A stretch of 64,000 bases of DNA, taken from Scleroderma bovista (lineage: Eukaryota; Basidiomycota; Agaricomycetes; Boletales; Sclerodermataceae). Position numbers and translations under genes: made by a program. The notes under the pieces were generated by a model. It worked only from the letters and a program-made list of their open reading frames with translations. It did no database searches and was not told where the DNA came from. The stretch covers positions 57,975-121,974 of the forward strand of contig JAYMGJ010000044.1 in the NCBI GenBank assembly GCA_037178675.1, in the 5' to 3' direction. Within the stretch, counting starts at the first letter, position 1. Each line of letters opens with the position of its first letter. Shown here in pieces: positions 32,003-42,578 of this stretch.

Positions 32003-34554
32003 ATGCCAAAGAAAAATCGCAAGACTACAGATAGCCAATCCAGCAGGGTATGCGGATCCCACTGCCACACCACACGAGGGGGGACTCTGATGTCGTTTCA
32101 GTATTCTCCTTACCCGACTCCCTCTGCCTCTGGGGGGCCGAGTGTCTTGATCAGGTCTCAGCACAGACGCCAGCCGGAGGCTGAGGGACCACCACGTCCT
32201 CATGAGTCATTTGTCTCTAACTCCACTTCAGTGGGGCACGAAGGGCCATCTGCTGTGTTCAAAGAGGTATGATGTTGTCTACGCATCCGCGAGCTGGATC
32301 TGAAGTGTCTACATACGGCGAACCACATAGCCCATGGCGATTGACCTTGAAAACGTCAGGGCCGTCGTACTCAAACCTTCCACTTTCACCGGTCCCGGAG
32401 AAACCACGGGGGAAGGACATGCTGCTGTTACTCACGAGGTCCGTGCACATGCAGTCATGCATTGCTGACGCTTATCGATCCCACCAGGTGTCAGGCGATA
32501 TCCAACCTGTTCCGACAGTACTCAGCCACACACAGGATGCACATATGGACCCCATTCCTGACCCAGCGGAGATTGCTGTTAATGCGCCCTGTCTCGTAGA
32601 CACTGGATATCGCCAAACCCTTAGCACTTTCAGTACAGTCATCAATGGCATTACGAGTGTTTGTCATCCCAATGGCAGACAGTCGAGCTTGACTGATAAT
32701 CACGCATAGATCCATCCAGACGCTCAGATCGCCTTGAGTGCATTGAATAGGGCCTCCAAGGTATGCATTGATCACGCCCGATGTCTTCGATTAACGGGAA
32801 TCTGGACAGCTGCTGCTATCCCATGCGAGTATCGACGCATCTATCGGGGGGCTCGTTACTACAATCGAACGAACTTACGAGCTCATCCTGGAAAACAGGT
32901 CTTCATCGAAGATCAATGCCACGAAAGACGTCCTAGTGGAATCGCCCAAGTCATACAGGAATGCGCGCAGTTCATCACAAAGTACTCGGAAACGCAAACT
33001 TTCTGTACGCCACCTATTCCTGTAGTCTTCATGAAACTCATCTTTTTCATAGGGTCGTGGCTCGGGAAGAGTGTTCCCTCGGAGACAACGACCAAGGTCG
33101 TCAACTATACCTTGAAGTTAGAGAAGCTGATGCAAGAGCTTCGAGATCGACCAATTCCAGACATCCAATATGGCATCAAACAGATCTACGCAGATCTTAG
33201 CTCGAACTGCTTGACCTGTGCGGACAGAGTCGGACTCAACGAGGCGAAGAAATGCCTCGATGGCACGAGAATCGAGATCTTGAATGAAATTATTGACTGG
33301 ATCAACAACACAGACGCCGCTATACCGCGCATCTTCTGGCTCTACGGACAAGCTGGAAAGGGGAAATCGGCCATAGCGCATACAGTTGCTCGGCAGGCCC
33401 AGAATCTTAATCTTGGCGTGCTTCTGTTTCAGTCGCGTTAGACAGCACGAACAGCTCCATACGAAGCTCTTCCCGACCATCGCGCATGACTTGGCTCATC
33501 GCGACCTCCGTTTGCGACCGCTTTTGGTTGAAGTGACGACCAACAACTATTCATTGAGGGATTCGACAGACATCGCTGCACAGTGGAACAAACTCATTCT
33601 CGAACCCCTTTCCCAATTGAAGAGTTCCCCTACTGGAAATGTCGTGGTGGTCATTGATGCTTTGGATGAGAGTGGTACAGAGGGAACCAGGGCGACTGTC
33701 CTTGACGTCCTTGCTGTATACGGTGCAGAACTTCCGGCCAACTTCCGGATTCTCCTGACTTCTCGGCCACTGGTGGACATTGGGGATACATTAAACGCTA
33801 GTTCACACGTCTATGCCAGGTCGCTCGATGCCATTGATGCGGAGTTGACTATGCGCGACATTCACCTCTATGTTTCTACCCGTCTGAAGACTCTCCGTGG
33901 CACTTTCACCGATGAAAATTTCCAACAGCTCGCCGCGAAATCTGGTGGGGTATTCGAATGGGCACGTCTGGCATGTGACTTCATGTCCCCCAGAAGTGGA
34001 GTAGTCCCGAAGGACCGTTTCTATCAAATCATGTCTCATGCTCCTGGCGATGGAAGGACCCTTCTCGATGAAATGTATACCACGTTTTTGACGGATCTTT
34101 TCAGAAGGTCCGACCAGCGCCAGGAATTTCGTTCCGTCATGCGGCAGATCCTGTGGTTGAAGGAACCGCTCTCTATCAATGCATTGGACTTTATGCGTGA
34201 CAGGTTTCCCCGGGAGGATGACCGCTTTCCTGTAGGGTATATCCTCAACTTCATGGCACCACTGCTTTCTGGTGCCAATGAGCGATCTACTCCTGTCCGC
34301 CCCCTACATGCTTCGTTCTATGACTTTTTGCTCGATGAAAAGCGAAGTGGAGAGTTCTTTATTCAGCCGGATGGTGCACATCGTAATCTTGCTATTGCCT
34401 CGCTTTCTGTCATGCAAGCTGGCCTTCATTTCAACATCTGTAAACTGGAAACATCATACATATCCAACTTGGAGGTGGCAGACTTGGAAAAGAGGGTCGA
34501 AGAAAACATTCCACCACATCTGTTGTATTCGTGTCGATTCTGGGCAACCCACCT
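32003..34554 (+). pseudogene. NACHT (STAND NTPase) half of an interrupted NACHT-WD40 gene
   Basis: Exons encode MPKKNRKTTDSQSSR... at the start, a helical region (IAQVIQECAQFITKYSETQT, an intron, then FWSWLGKSVPSETTTKVVNY) and the NACHT domain. Within NACHT, IFWLYGQAGKGKSAIAHT is the Walker A motif and VVVVIDALDESG the Walker B motif, followed by ILLTSRPL. A winged-helix-like part follows, with RPLHASFYDFL and SCRFWATH. Such proteins are fungal NLR-like signal-transducing NTPases linked to non-self recognition. At 33411-33420 the frame changes: family members read LGACFCFSR, but here two bases are missing after Walker A. The gene is then cut at 34554 by element 2. Continuation is at 40891. 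Start and early introns (32270-32960) are uncertain. Confidence 0.8.
34550..34554. repeat. Target-site duplication (cacct) left of element 2
   Basis: cacct precedes the TG of the LTR and recurs at 40891-40895. Removing the element restores the reading ATHLQGAAF. Confidence 0.92.
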
Positions 34555-34925
34555 TGTTACGGTCCAACTTTTTATCTTATCTAATCTGCGATTAGATAGC
34601 GTTTATCTTATCTTAGTGTACAGCCTCTATCTTATCTACCTAGTCTAGACCTGTACCTCGTGCTGTACACGCTGCCACCCTTGACATCATTACGCATAGC
34701 CTTAGCTCCACAGTGATGTCATTACATAGCCTTTTACCTGCACGTAGCCTCATGGATAGCCTCGCGTAGCCCTCGTGTATAGTAGTATATATACCATGCA
34801 ATCCAGCACCCAGAGGCTCCCCATTCGAGCTCATCTTGGGTTATTGCTCTAGATCCTCGCGTCCTATTTCCTCTCAGAGTCTCGCGTGTAGTTGGGTCTT
34901 AGGTGTTCTGCCTAGGGTCATCTCA
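34555..34925 (+). repeat. 5' LTR of element 2
   Basis: 371 bp, TGTTACGG...GTCATCTCA. It matches 40520-40890 except for one base. Confidence 0.95.
34786..34833 (+). promoter_or_regulatory. LTR TATA box and predicted transcript start / self-primer
   Basis: TATATATA (34786-34793) lies 30-37 nt upstream of ATTCGAGCTCA (34823-34833). That 11-mer is the exact reverse complement of the primer-binding site at 34928-34938. This is the arrangement expected if transcription starts at 34823 and the RNA 5' end folds back as primer, as established for Tf1. The same sequences recur in the 3' LTR. Confidence 0.65.
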
Positions 34926-34927
34926 CC

Positions 34928-34938
34928 TGAGCTCGAAT
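34928..34938 (+). other. Primer-binding site of element 2 (self-priming type)
   Basis: TGAGCTCGAAT begins two bases after the LTR end and pairs over 11 of 11 bases with LTR positions 34823-34833. No tRNA-type TGG start is present. Confidence 0.65.
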
Positions 34939-35454
34939 CTATACATCTTACTCGCTCTACTACGCGCTCTCCTAGCCTTATAAGGAAACTATACCCGGAC
35001 TCCAGGGTTAAGGAGCTTCACCTTCATACCTTCTGTTTCGTTCACGGCCAGCCTTTAGTGCCGTTCCCGTAGTGCTTCGGCATTGGGAAGTTTTAGCACC
35101 GCTACCTTTACGTACTGTACACCAGCCCAGGGTCGTGCCTGGTGTCTGAAGGTCGGCACCCGTTCAAGAGAGGTTCGCAGCCTCAAGGCGATTGAGACAT
35201 ACATACTCCGTAGTTCCTGCGTCCGTGCAGAGGTAGACCCTGTGATCTGCAGCCGCTAGCCGTTTGTTCTCTGCATAGCTGTGCCACTGCCCTGATCCGG
35301 CGAGCGCGACAGGCGAACAGAGTCTTACGCTTAGTTTAGCGGAACAACTGTGGGGATCTAGTCCCGAAAGTAACTTTACTCCTACGTCACCCCTTACGCT
35401 ACCACCATACCTTACCAGTTCCCTCGTCACCTCGTCGAAGCGCAACAGGAGCGC

Positions 35455-35730
35455 TTGACGATCATCTACGGTCCTCGTCCTGACACCCTTGTCAAAGTAC
35501 AAGAAAGGGAGTCAGCAATCGAAGAGGAGTTCCAGTTCACCAACGCCGTTGCCGCCTACAGTCGCCTTGTCAGCGACTTCGAAATCCAAGTCCTACTCGG
35601 CTTCCACCGTTCCCTTCCTGTCGCGCCCCTGCCAGACCTCCCGCTCGCTCGCCGCCGCACGTTCCGGTCTTCCCGTCTCCGACCAGTTAAACAAAGACCT
35701 ACCCCCTATTCCCGCCTCCACCCCTATTAG
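35455..35730 (+). CDS. Leader ORF in frame with gag, closed by one TAG
   Basis: An ATG-initiated 91-codon frame (MTIIYGPRPDTLVKVQERES...) ends at TAG 35728-35730, six bases before the gag ATG and in the same frame. An overlapping +1 frame from 35489 (SDQLNKDLPPIPASTPIR and Ser-rich sequence) looks equally protein-like and runs past the gag start. Which is translated, if either, cannot be decided by eye. It could be an upstream ORF, a stop-readthrough extension of Gag, or chance. Confidence 0.35.
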   Translation: MTIIYGPRPDTLVKVQERESAIEEEFQFTNAVAAYSRLVSDFEIQVLLGFHRSLPVAPLPDLPLARRRTFRSSRLRPVKQRPTPYSRLHPY

Positions 35731-35736
35731 GTCCTC

Positions 35737-36735
35737 ATGGCAGACCTTAACCAGCTCCTCGGACAGCTTGTCCAGGGGCAAATTGACCTCCAAGCACATA
35801 TCGCGGCCCTTGCGGCTGCACAGCCTCACCCTGCACCGCCGCCGCGCAAGAAGGTGGTCGCGGATCCCGGGAGTTACGATGGCTCCCCTCAGAAGTTCCA
35901 CGAGTGGTGGTCTAAGATCAAGATTTGGTTACAGATCGCGATGGAGGGGACAAACGACGCCCAGGTTACCGCCGCAGTTCTCTCCCGACTCACTGGCCCG
36001 AAAGCTGGTCGGTGGGCTCAGGTCCGTCTGGATAGCTGCATGGCAGCAGCCCAGGCCCAGGCCAACGCCCCGCCCGTCCCAGCTGGACAGCTCCCGCCCC
36101 CCCCGGCCTGGCCCGCCTGGGATGACTTCGCAGAGGAGATAGAGAGGTTCTTTCTCCCTGGAAACAACGCCGAGTGGGCACGTGCCCAACTTCTCCGCCT
36201 TAGGCAAGGCCCGAGGCAGAGAATTGACGACTTCTTAGCGCAATTCGAAGCGCTCAAGAACCAAGGGGGCTGTGGAGATGAATACGCCCGTGATCTGCTC
36301 GAACGCGCGCTCCAGAGGAAACTCTTGGAGCAAATCTACATACAAGGAATGCGACGAGACACCTACGAGCGACTCGCAAACTCTGCTCGTGCGATGGGAA
36401 GAGCCCAGGAACTCTTCCTCATCAACCTCCAAGGGCAAGGCTCTGCCCGGTATTACCAGAGCCAATCATATTCGTCTTCAACCGCATCGGGGAGTGGTGT
36501 CCCGATGGACATAGGTGCCGTTGAAGTGAACCAGCAAAGGGGTAAAGGGCCCCAATGCTACAATTGCCAATTATTTGGCCACATTGCACGTGAGTGCACA
36601 AAGCCGCGCCGCCCTCGTCGTGGGCAACCACAAGCACGGGCAACGCAAGCCCAGCCGGAGGATGACCGGCTAAATGCGGTAAGAGGAATGACATTTGCAG
36701 AAATGCAGGCATTCTTCAGGGATTTAAAAGACTAA
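35737..36735 (+). CDS. Gag of element 2 (332 aa)
   Basis: MADLNQLLGQLVQGQIDLQ is followed by a capsid region (YDGSPQKFHEWWSKIKIWLQ, FFLPGNNAEWARAQLLRL, RIDDFLAQFEALKNQ) and one CCHC knuckle, CYNCQLFGHIAREC, near residue 273. It ends DLKD at TAA 36733-36735. The last codons contain the slippery site used to enter pol. Gag packages the RNA and forms the particle. Confidence 0.9.
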   Translation: MADLNQLLGQLVQGQIDLQAHIAALAAAQPHPAPPPRKKVVADPGSYDGSPQKFHEWWSKIKIWLQIAMEGTNDAQVTAAVLSRLTGPKAGRWAQVRLDSCMAAAQAQANAPPVPAGQLPPPPAWPAWDDFAEEIERFFLPGNNAEWARAQLLRLRQGPRQRIDDFLAQFEALKNQGGCGDEYARDLLERALQRKLLEQIYIQGMRRDTYERLANSARAMGRAQELFLINLQGQGSARYYQSQSYSSSTASGSGVPMDIGAVEVNQQRGKGPQCYNCQLFGHIARECTKPRRPRRGQPQARATQAQPEDDRLNAVRGMTFAEMQAFFRDLKD

Positions 36736-36766
36736 AGAGTGAGGATAAAACGGGCATCCTCGCTCT
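36723..36766 (+). promoter_or_regulatory. -1 programmed frameshift signal (slippery heptamer plus hairpin)
   Basis: In the gag frame 36723-36729 reads T TTA AAA, a canonical X XXY YYZ heptamer, two codons before the gag stop. After a 7-nt spacer (GACTAAA), GAGTGAGGAT (36737-36746) pairs with ATCCTCGCTC (36756-36765): 10 bp with one G-U pair around a 9-nt loop. One more A-T pair (36736/36766) is possible. Slipping -1 enters exactly the pol frame, which is open from there. Pol has no ATG near its start. Confidence 0.8.
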
Positions 36767-39700
36767 CGAGTCTTCATTGGACTTAGCTGTACGTATTCTG
36801 GACTATAGACTCTCTCGTGCTACTACTCCTGCAGTGCAGGAAATATTTAAATACCGCATTGCTTTGTTACGTACAAAAATAGCGAAAACCCACAAGAAAG
36901 TGTCTTCGGTAGTTTCTCCTGTTTCTGTTTCTCCTTCCCGCTACTCTGTGTTGTCTATTGATACTATGGACTGTGACTCGGACTATACTGTACCTTCTAA
37001 GGGGGTCCCTGCAAAGGGCTCGGCGCCGGAAGTAAAATCGAGCGTGCTTAATTCCCGATCGAATAAAAATATTTCTTCTCCTTCTTTGGCATCTAAGGAA
37101 CCGGAAAGTCCCGCCGGCAACTTGGAAGTTCACGTGGACTTACGAAGGTCCTTCACAATGGAACGTGAAGTGACGGTACCGGTCTGCATCCGCGGACCGC
37201 TTAACACTATTAAAGTAGACGCTCTGCTAGACAGCGGCGCTACTGGTTGTTTTGTTGACAAGAGCTGGGCTCTTGATCGACGACTTCAGTTATCTAAGCT
37301 AGTGAAACCCGTTCCTGTGCTTAACGTAGATGGCACTAGGAATCAGGAGGGTGACATCACGCATTATGTATTGTTAACAGTCGGTATTGGAAAACATGCT
37401 GAAAAGCTGTGGTGTGCCGTCACGTGCCTTGGAAAAGTGCCGCTTATCCTTGGCCACACCTGGCTTCAGAAGCACAACCCCGATATAGATTGGGTAACAG
37501 GCAAAGTTAATTTAACAAGGTGTCCGCCAGAGTGCAAGTCACTTTTGGAAACACGCTTTGCTAAGTTATTACGAGAAAACGAATCTCAGGAAACTTGGGT
37601 ACAAGCTTTGAAAGCTCATGAATCAAAGGTCGCTATCGATGAGTCGACCCTAGAGGAAGCTCAGAAGCAGGTTCCTAAAGAGTACTGGGAGTTCTTAGAC
37701 GTATTTAGTAAAAAGTTGTCGGAGCGCATGCCGCTAAGAAAACCTTGGGATCATGGAATTGATCTGAAAGAAGACTTCCCACCCAAAAAGGGAAGACTCA
37801 TTCCGCTCTCTGTTGATGAACAAAAAGAGGTCGAATCGTTCCTTGATGATCAACTCGCTAAAGGATACATTCGACCTTCTATTAGTCAGCAGACGTCACC
37901 GGTCTTCTTTATCCCAAAAAAGGACGGCAAGAAGCGCATGGTACAGGATTACCGTTACGTCAACGACTGGACAATTAAGAATAACTATCCGCTGCCGCTT
38001 ATATCTCAGCTTGTTGACAAGCTTAAGGGTTGTAAACTCTTCACGAAAATGGACCTTCGGTGGGGTTATAACAATGTGAGGATTCGCGAAGGCGATGAGT
38101 GGAAAGCTGCGTTTGTAACGCACAAAGGAGCTTTCGAGCCGTTAGTTATGTATTTCGGTCTCTGTAATTCACCCGCAACATTCCAGAAAATGATGAACGA
38201 GATTTTCCACGATATGTCGGATGTCTGCGTGGTGTATATCGATGACCTTATGATATTTACGGATACGGACGATCAGGAAAAGCATGATAGAATTGTGCTG
38301 GAAGTTTTGAAACGTTTACGTGATAACGACTTGTTTGTCAAACCAGAGAAGTGTCGCTTCAGAGTCACCGAAGTCGACTTCCTCGGTATGATCGTGTCAC
38401 GGGATGGTATCAAAATGGACCCTGAAAAAGTTAATGCTATTTTGAAATGGCCTGAGCCAACGAACGTAAAACAAGTTCGCGCGTTCTTAGGTCTCGGCAA
38501 TTTCTATAGACGTTTCATTAAAGATTATGCGGTCATGGCTAGACCCATGACGGACCTTACGTGTAAAGATACGGTATTTAACTTTGGAGAAAAGGAACGC
38601 GCTGCGTTCGAAGCTTTGAAAGCCGCCTTTACTCGTGCTCCGGTACTTCAGTACCCTGACCAGGACCGCGAATTCCGCCTCGAAACCGATGCGTCTGAGT
38701 TCGCCGTCGGGGGAGTGATATCCGTGAAGTGCGAAGACGGCGAATTCAGACCCGTAGCGTACATGTCGCATTCCATGACGCCTCCAGAACGAAATTATCC
38801 TATTCACGATAAAGAGATGCTGGCCATCATAAAAGCAACTGAGGCCTGGCGCCATTATCTCGAGGCCACTCCTTATGCCTTTGAGATCTACACGGACCAT
38901 CATAATTTAACGTACTTCACCAAGTCGCAGAATTTGTCTAAGCGCCAAGCGCGCTGGCAGATGTGGATGACGCGGTTTAACTATTCGCTTATCTATAAAA
39001 AGGGAACCCAGATGCACGTTGCAGATCCGCTTAGCAGACGATCGGACCATTACGTATCTAGTTCCGATGACAACAAGGACCAGGTCCTGTTGAACCCGGT
39101 ATCTATTAAACTGATCGACGTCACTGATCAGTCTTACGAAGAGCGACAGTCGCTCATTACGAACTTTCACGATACTCCTGTTGCCGGTCATAAAGGAGTA
39201 AAAGCTACGTATAACGCGCTCAGGAAGCATTATTCTTGGAAAGGGATGAAAGAGCAGATTCAAACCTACGTAAGGCACTGTCAAAAGTGCCAACAGTCCA
39301 AGGTGTCGAATCAAAAGACTTCTGGAAGTCTTATCCCTCTCCCTACCCCTAGCGGCCCGTGGCTTGATGTCACTATGGACTTTACCGAGATGCCGGAATC
39401 CCTCGGTTACAATTATATATTAGTCGTGGTTGATCGGTTCTCCAAGGAGGTCGTGTTTGTGCCTTGCACTAAGGAGGAAACCGCTTTGTCAACCGCCGAG
39501 TTATTTAGAGATCATGTCTGGTGTCAGCATGGACTCCCATCTTCCGTCGTGTCAGACCGCGGATCGGTCTTTGCAAGCAACTTCCTGGGGGAGTTGTATA
39601 GACTCTTAGGCATTAAAAGGAAAATGTCTACGGCGTTTCACCCTCAAACTGATGGTCAAACGGAGCGGTTGAACCGCGAAATTAATCAGTATCTCCGAAC

Positions 39701-40508
39701 CTACGTCAATGATCGACAAAGCGAATGGGCCAAATGGATCAAGATTGCCCAGTTCGTTTGGAACAACACGGTTTCGGAGGTAACCACTGATTCACCGTTT
39801 GGAATTACCCGGAGTTATTCCCCTCGTATGGGTGTCGAGCCGATCGACACAGTAGCCCCAGCGGCTAAGGACTTTGCCGCCGTATTTAATAAAGTCGTTG
39901 AGTCTTCTGAGAAGGCAAAACGTAATATGAAGCTTCAGGCGGATAAGCACAGGAATCCCGCCCCGGACTATGTTATAGGCCAACAAGTTTGGCTTTCTAC
40001 AGACAACCTTCGCATGCTAAATCGTGCTTCTAAAAAGCTTACGGAGAAGTGGATTGGTCCCTATGAGGTCACTCGTGTAACCCCGAATGCGGTCGAGCTT
40101 AAGCTCCCGAAAACTCTTCGGATTCACCCGGTTGTGAATGTTTCTCGAGTTAAACCTTATTTAGGTCCTCTTCCCGGTCAACCCGTGTCTCGGCCTGGTC
40201 CGATACATGTCTCTGAAGAACGCGATGAAGAGTACGAAGTGGACTATATTGTAGCCTCTCGTATTTATAAAAGACAGCTCCAGTATTTGGTACACTGGAA
40301 AGGGTACGAAGAACATGAGAGAACATGGGAGCCCTCATCGAACTTGAAGAATTCTCCTCTGGTAGTCGAGCGCTTTTACCGAGAGAACCCCTCTGCTCCT
40401 CGGAAGCTTCGTATGGCCCGAACGGACTTTGACTCGTTATTTAGTCGTATCCCCGAAAACCTCACGGTTTGCGACGCTCAGTTCTGCAGTCTGGAATCCT
40501 GCACCTGA
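36723..40508 (+). CDS. Pol of element 2 (expressed as Gag-Pol by -1 frameshift)
   Basis: The open frame continues from the slip site (FKRLKSEDKTGILALES) to TGA at 40506-40508. Domains in order: protease ALLDSGATGCFVD (about 37229), reverse transcriptase (VFFIPKKDGKKRMVQDYR to YIDDLMIFTD, about 38238), RNase H (LETDASEFAVGGVI), integrase zinc finger (HKGVKATYNALRKHY, CQKCQQSK), catalytic core (VTMDFTEMP, SDRGSVFAS, GQTERLNRE) and a C-terminal chromodomain (DYIVASRIYKRQLQYLVHWK, GYEEHERTWEPSSNL). All catalytic Asp/Glu residues are present. It appears fully functional. Confidence 0.93.
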   Translation, partial: FKRLKSEDKTGILALESSLDLAVRILDYRLSRATTPAVQEIFKYRIALLRTKIAKTHKKVSSVVSPVSVSPSRYSVLSIDTMDCDSDYTVPSKGVPAKGSAPEVKSSVLNSRSNKNISSPSLASKEPESPAGNLEVHVDLRRSFTMEREVTVPVCIRGPLNTIKVDALLDSGATGCFVDKSWALDRRLQLSKLVKPVPVLNVDGTRNQEGDITHYVLLTVGIGKHAEKLWCAVTCLGKVPLILGHTWLQKHNPDIDWVTGKVNLTRCPPECKSLLETRFAKLLRENESQETWVQALKAHESKVAIDESTLEEAQKQVPKEYWEFLDVFSKKLSERMPLRKPWDHGIDLKEDFPPKKGRLIPLSVDEQKEVESFLDDQLAKGYIRPSISQQTSPVFFIPKKDGKKRMVQDYRYVNDWTIKNNYPLPLISQLVDKLKGCKLFTKMDLRWGYNNVRIREGDEWKAAFVTHKGAFEPLVMYFGLCNSPATFQKMMNEIFHDMSDVCVVYIDDLMIFTDTDDQEKHDRIVLEVLKRLRDNDLFVKPEKCRFRVTEVDFLGMIVSRDGIKMDPEKVNAILKWPEPTNVKQVRAFLGLGNFYRRFIKDYAVMARPMTDLTCKDTVFNFGEKERAAFEALKAAFTRAPVLQYPDQDREFRLETDASEFAVGGVISVKCEDGEFRPVAYMSHSMTPPERNYPIHDKEMLAIIKATEAWRHYLEATPYAFEIYTDHHNLTYFTKSQNLSKRQARWQMWMTRFNYSLIYKKGTQMHVADPLSRRSDHYVSSSDDNKDQVLLNPVSIKLIDVTDQSYEERQSLITNFHDTPVAGHKGVKATYNALRKHYSWKGMKEQIQTYVRHCQKCQQSKVSNQKTSGSLIPLPTPSGPWLDVTMDFTEMPESLGYNYILVVVDRFSKEVVFVPCTKEETALSTAELFRDHVWCQHGLPSSVVSDRGSVFASNFLGELYRLLGIKRKMSTAFHPQTDGQTERLNREINQYLRTYVNDRQSEWAKWIKIAQFVWNNTVSEVTTDSPFGITRSYSPRMGVEPIDTVAPAAKDFAAVFNKVVESSEKAKRNMKLQADKHRNPAPDYVIGQQVWLSTDNLRMLNRASKKLTEKWIGPYEVTRVTPNAVELKLPKTLRIHPVVNVSRVKPYLGPLPGQPVSRPGPIHVSEERDEEYEVDYIVASRIYKRQLQYLVHWKGYEEHERTWEPSSNLKNSPLVVERFYRENPSAPRKLRMARTDFDSLFSRIPENLTVCDAQFCSLESCT

Positions 40509-40516
40509 GGGGGGAG
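40507..40516 (+). other. Polypurine tract of element 2
   Basis: gaggggggag lies three bases before the 3' LTR at 40520 and overlaps the end of the pol stop codon. Confidence 0.75.
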
Positions 40517-40519
40517 TAG

Positions 40520-40890
40520 TGTTACGGTCCAACTTTTTATCTTATCTAATCTGCGATTAGATAGCGTTTATCTTATCTTAGTGTACAGCCTCTATCTTAT
40601 CTACCTAGTCTAGACCTGTACCTCGTGCTGTACACGCTGCCACCCTTGACATCATTACGCATAGCCTTAGCTCCACAGTGATGTCATTACATAGCCTTTT
40701 ACCTGCACGTAGCCTCATGGATAGCCTTGCGTAGCCCTCGTGTATAGTAGTATATATACCATGCAATCCAGCACCCAGAGGCTCCCCATTCGAGCTCATC
40801 TTGGGTTATTGCTCTAGATCCTCGCGTCCTATTTCCTCTCAGAGTCTCGCGTGTAGTTGGGTCTTAGGTGTTCTGCCTAGGGTCATCTCA
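40520..40890 (+). repeat. 3' LTR of element 2
   Basis: 371 bp, differing from the 5' LTR only at 40728. It ends CA and is followed by TSD cacct (40891-40895). Confidence 0.95.
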
Positions 40891-42578
40891 CACCTCCAAG
40901 GTGCAGCATTTGATCAAGACATGGCACAATTAGTGAGGGAGATTGTCACTGGAGAACAGATGTTATTTTGGTTGGAGGCCCTTGGTGTATCAAAGTTGAT
41001 TAGGGAGGCCTGTGGGGCACTGATCTCTGCTGAGGGATGGTTGCAGGTAAGTTTATTCATGCCTAATCATGGGATGTCATCTCTCTAACATTGAATCAGC
41101 ACAAAAGAATAGAGTATGAAGAATCTTTGATGTTCATCAAGGATGGGATCAAATTTGTGCAGAACTTTGCTGGGATCATTGACAAGAGCACACCACACCT
41201 ATACTTATCAGCATTGCCATTTTCACCATCAAAGTCAATATTGGCAAGATCTCAGATTGAAAGATTTGCAGGAATTGCACAAGTTACTGTAGGACAACAG
41301 GATGACTGGCCCAGGAATCAACAGGTTCTTCAAGGGCACACAGACTTGGTCTGGTCAGTTGTATTCTCACCAGATGGAAGGCACATTGTGTCAGGTTCAG
41401 AGGATATGACAATCCAACTTTGGGATGCACAGACAGGTGGCCAGGTGGGAAACCCCCTCCTAGGGCACACACACTCAATCTTGTCAGTTGCATTCTCACC
41501 AGATGGAAGGTACATTGTGTCAGGTTCTTGGGATATGACAATCCGACTTTGGGATGCACAGACTGGTGACCAGGTGGGCAACCCCCTCCAAGGGCACACA
41601 CACTCAGTTGAGTCAGTTGCATTTTCATCAGATGGAAGACACATTGTGTCAGGTTCAAGGGATAAGACAATCCAACTTTGGGATGCACAGACAGGTGACC
41701 AGGTTGGTAACCCCCTCCAAGGGCACACACACTCAGTTTTTTCAGTTGCATTCTCACCAGATGGAAGGTACATTGTGTCAGGTTCAGAGGATAAGATAAT
41801 CTGGCTTTGGGATGTACAGACAGGTGACCAGATGGGTAACCCCCTCCAAGGGCACACAGACTCAGTTTTGTCAGTTGCATTTTCACCAGATGGAAGGCAC
41901 ATTGTGTCAGGTTCTTCAGATAAGACAATCCGACTTTGGGATGCACAGACAGGTGGCCAGGTGGGCAATCCCCTCCAAGGGCACACAAGCACAGTCTGGT
42001 CAGTTGCATTCTCACCAGATGGAAGGCATATTGTGTCAGGTTCAGAGGATATGACAATCCAACTTTGGAATGCACAGACAGGTGGCCAGGTGGGCAACCC
42101 CCTCCAAGGGCACACACAATCAGTTGAGTCAGTTGCATTCTCACCAGATGGAAGGTACATTGTGTCAGGTTCTTGGGACAACACAATCTGACTTTGGGAT
42201 GCACAGACAGTGGACCATGTGGGCAATGCCCTTACTAACAAGCAAAGTACAGATTTCCTCTCCAGTACACCCCCACCAATCCACTTCTCATCTTTAGCTA
42301 CACATGCACTGGATGATGCTCAGAGTCTTTTTGTTGACATGACCAATGTCAATGGGAACTGCTGAGACCTGATTCATTTGCAGAATGATGGCTGGATTGT
42401 GGGTCCCAATGGGCAACTGTTGCTGTGGGTGCCTCCCTCATACCATAAATTGTTTCACTATACTCCTTGGACACATCTAGTAATCCCAAGAGGTAGTCCT
42501 GAGCTTGATTTGAGCAAGATGGCTCATGGTCCTGCTTGGCACAGATGTTACACACCTCTTCCTGAGCATACTAATTAG
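40891..42578 (+). pseudogene. WD40 half of the interrupted NACHT-WD40 gene
   Basis: Reading resumes at the TSD: HLQGAAFDQDMAQLVREI. An intron follows GWLQ (41047-41099), then HKRIEYEESLMFIKDGIKFV. From about 41336 there are seven 43-residue WD40 repeats (GHT..V.SVAFSPDGR.IVSGS.D.TI.LWDAQTG.QVGNPLQ). At 42189 a TGA replaces the Arg of the seventh IRLWD. The same frame continues through LWDAQTVDHVGNAL, another TGA near 42363, and the family C-terminus DGWIVGPNGQLLLWVPP to a TAG near 42578. The propeller would be the ligand-sensing part of the receptor. With frameshift, insertion and stops the locus is dead as one gene. This half is nearly devoid of CpG. Confidence 0.85.
41336..42240 (+). repeat. 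129-bp tandem repeats encoding WD40 blades
   Basis: Seven near-identical 129-bp units, one WD40 blade each. The codon before LWD is CAA, CGA, CAA, TGG, CGA, CAA and TGA in successive units, which is the set expected from an ancestral CGA/CGG decaying at CpG. High similarity between blades is typical of fungal non-self recognition repeats that evolve by unequal exchange. Confidence 0.9.

What the first reader, a model, noticed from the sequence alone, without database searches (positions are those of the whole stretch)
36723..36766. Complete -1 frameshift cassette joining gag and pol of a fungal chromovirus
The sequence shows a slippery heptamer T TTA AAA in the gag frame, two codons before the gag TAA. 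A 7-nt spacer and a 10-bp hairpin (one G-U, 9-nt loop) follow. Slipping -1 at this site enters the open pol frame, which has no suitable ATG. All three parts at ideal spacing are unlikely by chance. Many fungal Ty3/gypsy elements use one fused frame or other recoding, so an explicit signal in an agaric element merits attention.
Basis: partly seen in the sequence, partly recalled or inferred. Interest (0 to 1): 0.8.

Follow-up and report, generated by a model that had tools for sequence, protein, structure and literature searches.

The report
Conserved gag-pol frameshift signal, fungal retrotransposon
A mobile element in a fungal genome carries a short, strongly conserved RNA signal that should make some ribosomes slip back one base and so make a fused Gag-Pol protein; the signal looks real, but it is a textbook device already reported as common in this group of elements.

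Summary
At 36723-36729 the gag frame reads GAT TTA AAA GAC TAA, a canonical T TTA AAA heptamer. A hairpin follows: 11 bp after a 6-nt spacer, or 10 bp after 7 nt if A36736-U36766 is not counted. Pol is open in the -1 frame and encodes RT, RNase H, integrase and a chromodomain.

Copies in the same genome show that the signal is under selection. A pattern for the Gag end allowing any Leu/Lys codon found 104 sites; the TTTAAAA-only version also found 104. With the heptamer left free, 102 sites were found; the 100 shown are TTTAAAA. The 8-bp core stem pairs in 98 of 100 copies. A second lineage (RT about 52% identical) has A AAA AAA or A AAA AAT, again a 6-nt spacer and a 9-11-bp hairpin; 38 of 40 copies keep the -1 offset and one stem pair is G-C, A-U or G-U by subgroup.

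Best reading: programmed -1 ribosomal frameshifting, inferred, not assayed. Reinitiation at ATG 36966 or splicing is less likely. It is not unusual: PMC10085805 says Tf1/sushi elements outside fission yeasts predominantly use -1 frameshifting.

The parts
34555..34925 (+). 5' LTR, 371 bp (TGTTAC...ATCTCA); one mismatch to the 3' LTR (at 34763); flanked by the 5-bp repeat CACCT at 34550-34554
34823..34833 (+). 11 nt in the 5' LTR exactly complementary to 34928-34938 next to the LTR end: candidate self-primer (Tf1-like)
34928..34938 (+). candidate primer binding site, complement of 34823-34833
35737..36735 (+). gag ORF, 332 aa, CCHC zinc knuckle, ends ...FFRDLKD*
36723..36729 (+). slippery heptamer T TTA AAA in the gag frame
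36730..36735 (+). 6-nt spacer GACTAA that holds the gag stop (7 nt if A36736 is counted as unpaired)
36736..36746 (+). 5' arm of the hairpin; core 36737-36744
36747..36755 (+). 9-nt loop, variable at 36747-36752
36756..36766 (+). 3' arm of the hairpin; core 36758-36765
36723..40508 (+). pol as entered by a -1 slip: protease motif DSGATG at 37230, RT, RNase H, integrase, chromodomain; stop codon ends at 40508
36966..36968 (+). first ATG after the gag stop, in the pol frame (site of the reinitiation rival)
40520..40890 (+). 3' LTR, 371 bp, followed by CACCT at 40891-40895; purine-rich tract just upstream

Best explanation
It is a programmed -1 ribosomal frameshift signal. Ribosomes translating gag pause at the hairpin 36736-36766 with T TTA AAA in the P and A sites; a minority of tandem tRNAs re-pair one base back on TTT AAA, miss the gag stop at 36733 and run on into pol, giving Gag-Pol at a low ratio to Gag, which an LTR element needs to build particles and package its enzymes. 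Shown here: the sequence parts, their geometry, their conservation in copies and a second lineage, and frame-specific constraint on pol directly after the site. Inferred: the slip itself, its efficiency and the Gag to Gag-Pol ratio.
For: Heptamer, spacer, stem and -1 open frame are present and unexpected by chance. Codon-level constraint: any-Leu/Lys pattern 104 hits, TTTAAAA pattern 104 hits; heptamer-free pattern 102 hits, 100 rows shown, each TTTAAAA; 41 of 41 copies taken by DNA similarity or RT, while neighbouring synonymous sites vary (36714, 36732, 36735). Of RT-defined copies without the pattern, 17 stretches were read; 14 contain the junction and the 14 have TTTAAAA. Stem: 8 sites of the 5' arm carry 1 inferred change in total, 0 of 100,000 matched draws as low; core pairs complete in 98 of 100 copies; 23 of 24 inferred core changes keep pairing. 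Pol frame before the first ATG (36771-36965): third-position excess in the -1 frame only, 0 of 10,000 permutations. Second lineage.
Against: No protein, ribosome-profiling or reporter evidence. The stem-core changes are concentrated at the CpG 36761-36762 (21 of 24), so most of the 'pairing kept' evidence in this lineage is one-sided. The set of 100 copies was picked by a pattern that demands TTTAAAA, so its zero changes at the heptamer are by construction; the unselected sets above carry that claim. L182 has a stem change that breaks the 36740-36762 pair, L122 breaks another and L131 lacks the 3' arm. In the second lineage 2 of 40 copies are fused in frame (L155, L176).
Confidence: 0.93

Rival explanations
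1. Termination-reinitiation: ribosomes stop at 36733 and restart at ATG 36966, making a separate Pol without Gag.
For: ATG 36966 is the first ATG after the gag stop in any frame, is in the pol frame and upstream of protease.
Against: ATG is kept in 82 of 100 copies, GTG in 12 and other letters in the rest. The pol frame is constrained over 36771-36965, upstream of that ATG. It explains neither the frozen heptamer nor the stem.
Confidence: 0.03
2. Splicing: an intron removes the gag stop and joins gag to pol in frame, for example 36679-36839 (GTAAGA donor, TGCAG acceptor, 161 nt).
For: The donor and acceptor letters exist and would join the frames in the window copy. NCBI gene models such as P0063 and P0067 skip from ...NAV to LES, leaving out the Gag tail and slip site.
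Against: GTAAGA itself is present in 56 of 100 copies and GTCAGA in 27; GT is kept in 98, but it is part of a Val codon; acceptor AG is kept in 86 of 100. The stretch inside the would-be intron, 36771-36836, shows pol-frame third-position excess (permutation P 0.015). PMC10085805 describes such an intron in a Tcn1 gene model as a wrong annotation caused by the frameshift (passage). A spliced RNA could also not serve as the genomic RNA (general knowledge).
Confidence: 0.03
3. The conserved bases are kept for another RNA role (packaging, dimer or primer contact), and the heptamer is only a Gag tail LKD.
For: The Gag tail is conserved as protein: 104 of 111 relatives with the tail motif in the last 30 residues end in LKD. 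The loop bases 36753-36755 are invariant without a pairing partner in the predicted fold.
Against: Protein constraint would allow other Leu and Lys codons; none was seen in 104 sites. TTA is 4 of 29 Leu codons in this gag. The second lineage ends KKE, KK or KN yet keeps a heptamer, the spacer and a hairpin.
Confidence: 0.01

Closest known systems
Programmed -1 ribosomal frameshifting, X_XXY_YYZ plus 3' structure (retroviral and retrotransposon gag-pol type)
   Same: Canonical tandem-slip heptamer in the 0 frame, 6-7-nt spacer, stable 3' hairpin, overlapping -1 pol frame.
   Different: No measured efficiency; the stimulator looks like a simple hairpin, and no pseudoknot was tested for beyond reading the flanking sequence.
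Tf1/sushi chromoviruses of fungi and vertebrates (marY1, MAGGY, Cgret, skippy, Tcn1, sushi-ichi as listed in PMC10085805)
   Same: Chromodomain integrase, CCHC Gag, self-priming signature, -1 pol. PMC10085805 (passages) says the group outside fission yeasts predominantly uses -1 frameshifting; the strategy given there for marY1, an element of Tricholoma matsutake, is in a figure that was not seen.
   Different: No tree was built here to place the element among them; the exact slip sites of those elements were not compared.
VdLTRE2/3/4 of Verticillium dahliae (PMC3441728, passages)
   Different: An ascomycete host; the passages seen give no slippery site or hairpin.
Stop-codon readthrough elements Tj1, Tosmo1-3, Tcry1, and single-ORF Tf1/Tf2 (PMC10085805, PMC4600332, passages)
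   Same: Same wider group and same need for less Pol than Gag.
   Different: Those have gag and pol in one frame, with or without a stop; here the frames differ by -1.

Membership tests
Programmed -1 ribosomal frameshift site | Heptamer X_XXY_YYZ in the 0 frame at or before the upstream stop | tested here: met
   T TTA AAA at 36723-36729
Programmed -1 ribosomal frameshift site | Stable RNA structure about 5-9 nt downstream | tested here: met
   11-bp hairpin after 6 nt, z -5.15
Programmed -1 ribosomal frameshift site | Overlapping downstream frame at -1 | tested here: met
   pol frame open 36666-40508
Programmed -1 ribosomal frameshift site | Signal conserved at the nucleotide level beyond coding need | tested here: met
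Programmed -1 ribosomal frameshift site | Covariation in the stimulatory stem | tested here: inconclusive
   Own lineage: only one-sided changes. Second lineage: pair 4 is G-C in 26, A-U in 7, G-U in 6 of 39 copies, but these are three subgroups, so few independent events
Programmed -1 ribosomal frameshift site | Measured slippage or junction peptide | not testable with these tools
   needs a reporter or mass spectrometry
Chromovirus (Ty3/gypsy) | RT, RNase H, integrase order with a C-terminal chromodomain | tested here: met
   Pfam hits in that order, chromodomain at residues 1171-1220
Chromovirus (Ty3/gypsy) | LTRs and target-site duplication | tested here: met
   371-bp LTRs, CACCT on both sides
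Tf1/sushi group | Self-priming: LTR stretch complementary to the primer binding site | tested here: met
   11-nt exact complement; transcript start not known
Tf1/sushi group | Placement in an RT-IN tree with Tf1, sushi-ichi and relatives | not tested
   no reference elements were fetched

The most novel reading that the evidence does not exclude
The cassette is one ancient module: its geometry (slip heptamer, 6-nt spacer with or next to the gag stop, 9-11-bp simple hairpin) was already fixed before two chromovirus lineages with about 52% identical RT split, and has been kept while the heptamer switched between T TTA AAA and A AAA AA(A/T) and the stem sequence was replaced. The alternative, convergence on one optimum, was not tested.
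Probability: 0.4. Interest if true: 0.45.

Novelty: new member of a known kind. Interest (0 to 1): 0.33.

Why it matters
It gives a well-replicated natural experiment on a -1 frameshift signal in a fungal genome: more than a hundred copies of one lineage and 40 sampled copies of another, with different heptamers and stems but the same spacing. That can be used to ask which features are needed in basidiomycete ribosomes. It also warns annotators: gene finders place introns over this junction.

Tried and rejected
Viral contigs held no encoded relative of the Gag. Rfam gave 0 matches up to E = 1 over 34500-41000. Gao et al. 2003 is not held; what is said of it comes from PMC5009743 and PMC10085805. 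Intron and reinitiation rivals were weighed and kept as unlikely. In the second lineage transcriptional slippage on the A run is possible and was not tested; it does not apply to TTTAAAA in the same way (inference). Read alone, looked bad for the finding: only 63 of 104 RT-defined copies had the FF..LKD pattern upstream. One more (C770) is a row. Of the 40 left, 20 were asked for: 3 lay beyond contig ends and 17 were read. Of these 17, 14 hold the junction (13 of a DYF/NF-type or clipped tail that the pattern cannot match, and L182, which the pattern does match and must be among its unlisted rows), each with TTTAAAA; L189, L191 and L197 show no junction there. 20 remain unexamined.

Full report
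What is there. The window holds an LTR retrotransposon at 34555-40890 with 371-bp LTRs that differ at one position and the 5-bp duplication CACCT on both sides. Gag (35737-36735, 332 aa) has a CCHC knuckle; pol has RT, RNase H, integrase and a chromodomain by Pfam, and the protease motif DSGATG at 37230. An 11-nt stretch of the 5' LTR (34823-34833) is the exact complement of 34928-34938 next to the LTR end, the self-priming signature of Tf1-like elements.

The junction. The gag frame ends GAT TTA AAA GAC TAA, so T TTA AAA (36723-36729) stands in the register of a tandem -1 slip. The RNA after it folds into an 11-bp hairpin with a 9-nt loop after a 6-nt spacer, -22.2 kcal/mol, z -5.15, 0 of 200 shuffles as good; two control stretches of 50 nt gave z 0.40 and -1.42. 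Of 222 canonical heptamers on both strands of the window this is the only one with such a stem; 0.01 sites with at least 10 bp are expected per simulated 64-kb strand. Pol lies in the -1 frame and is open from 36666 to 40508.

Conservation in the same lineage. The 301-nt junction query hit 40 places in the genome (132 candidates, 40 scored). In 41 copies (the window, 39 others of that list and one more from the RT search) TTTAAAA is intact in 41 of 41. A genome-wide pattern for the Gag end FFxxLKD-stop with any Leu and Lys codon gave 104 hits; with TTTAAAA required it gave 104. With the heptamer left free and the stop and 5' arm required instead, 102 hits; 100 rows are shown, each with TTTAAAA. 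100 copies (all rows listed; 4 of the 104 were not listed) were aligned. L042 was left out because its codon after the heptamer differs; its heptamer is intact. On a tree made without the signal, gag third positions over 36625-36720 carry 6.8 changes on average, 6 of 32 carry none, and four at random are all unchanged with P 0.00037. The heptamer carries none, though in this set that is by selection of the pattern; the free sets above are the fair test.

The stem. The 8 core sites of the 5' arm carry 1 change in all; 0 of 100,000 draws of pol-frame sites matched for codon position were as low. The 8 core pairs are complete in 98 of 100 copies. L122 breaks one pair and L131 lacks the 3' arm. 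Of 24 inferred core changes, 23 keep pairing, but 21 of these fall at the CpG 36761-36762, whose decay keeps pairing either way because 36762 faces a U. So there is conservation and tolerance, not true two-sided covariation, in this lineage. L182, seen later, breaks the 36740-36762 pair.

Translation after the slip. Between 36771 and 36965, before the first ATG, third positions of the -1 frame change more than the others (0 of 10,000 permutations as strong); the other two frames show no such excess (P 0.89 and 0.9999). 12 of 100 copies have a stop in the -1 frame there, against 99 and 100 in the other two. This is what translation from gag into pol predicts and what starting at ATG 36966 does not.

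Copies defined by RT. Of 104 places found by the RT (816 candidates, 104 scored), 63 have the listed pattern 600-1000 nt upstream and one more (C770) is a row. Of the other 40, 20 were asked for: 3 lie beyond contig ends, 17 were read, 14 of these contain the junction and the 14 have TTTAAAA; 3 show no junction there. No copy with the offset and another heptamer was seen in this lineage.

A second lineage. 40 copies were taken from the RVT_1 list (150 scored of 750 candidates), chosen mainly for long open frames, so not a random sample. Representative RT stretches are 51-52% identical to the window's and 85-88% to each other. 38 of 40 have gag and pol offset by -1 with A AAA AAA or A AAA AAT in the gag frame at the gag end; L155 and L176 are fused in frame by a changed A-run length. 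The structure starts after 6 nt in the three subgroups. For folded examples z was -3.22 and -2.18 (B), -2.64 (C) and -1.58 (D, 16 of 200 shuffles as good), so D's hairpin is not exceptional by energy alone. 39 of 40 match one of the three junction forms (L155 among them, L176 not), and the 39 keep 7 outer pairs; pair 4 is G-C in 26, A-U in 7 and G-U in 6, split by subgroup.

Relatives elsewhere. 

What is known. PMC5009743 (passages) reports from a 2003 survey that fungal elements use both +1 and -1. PMC10085805 (passages and part 1 of section 28) says Tf1/sushi elements outside fission yeasts predominantly use -1 frameshifting, and that a Tcn1 gene model carries a wrong intron for that reason. 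PMC3441728 (passages) describes -1 pol in Verticillium gypsy elements. Eight answered or attempted topic searches showed no listing of this exact cassette; most subscription papers are not held. So the kind is known and this is a new, well-supported member.

Judgement. Confidence 0.93 that it is a -1 frameshift signal. The slip, its rate and the protein ratio are inferred.

Noticed in passing
window 34823-34833 and 34928-34938: 11-nt exact complementarity between the 5' LTR and the stretch next to its end, with TATATA at 34786: Tf1-like self-priming rather than tRNA priming.
   Followed up: partly
window 33386-34648 and 41091-42191: The element sits between an ORF with an NPHP3_N (NACHT-like) domain and a WD40-repeat ORF on the same strand, so it probably interrupts an NLR-like gene; the flanks were not joined.
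   Followed up: partly
window 41199-42272: Seven copies of a 129-nt repeat, 80-89% alike apart from one end copy at 62%, encoding the WD40 units.
   Followed up: no
L155 and L176: Second-lineage copies in which a longer or shorter A run puts gag and pol in one frame; could be natural indels or sequencing errors.
   Followed up: no
window 36761-36762: The CpG of the 3' arm faces G and U, so loss of the CpG by either transition keeps the stem paired; 21 of 24 inferred core changes are there.
   Followed up: partly
window 36753-36755: Three loop bases, one a pol-frame third position, carry no change in 100 copies and have no pairing partner in the fold.
   Followed up: no
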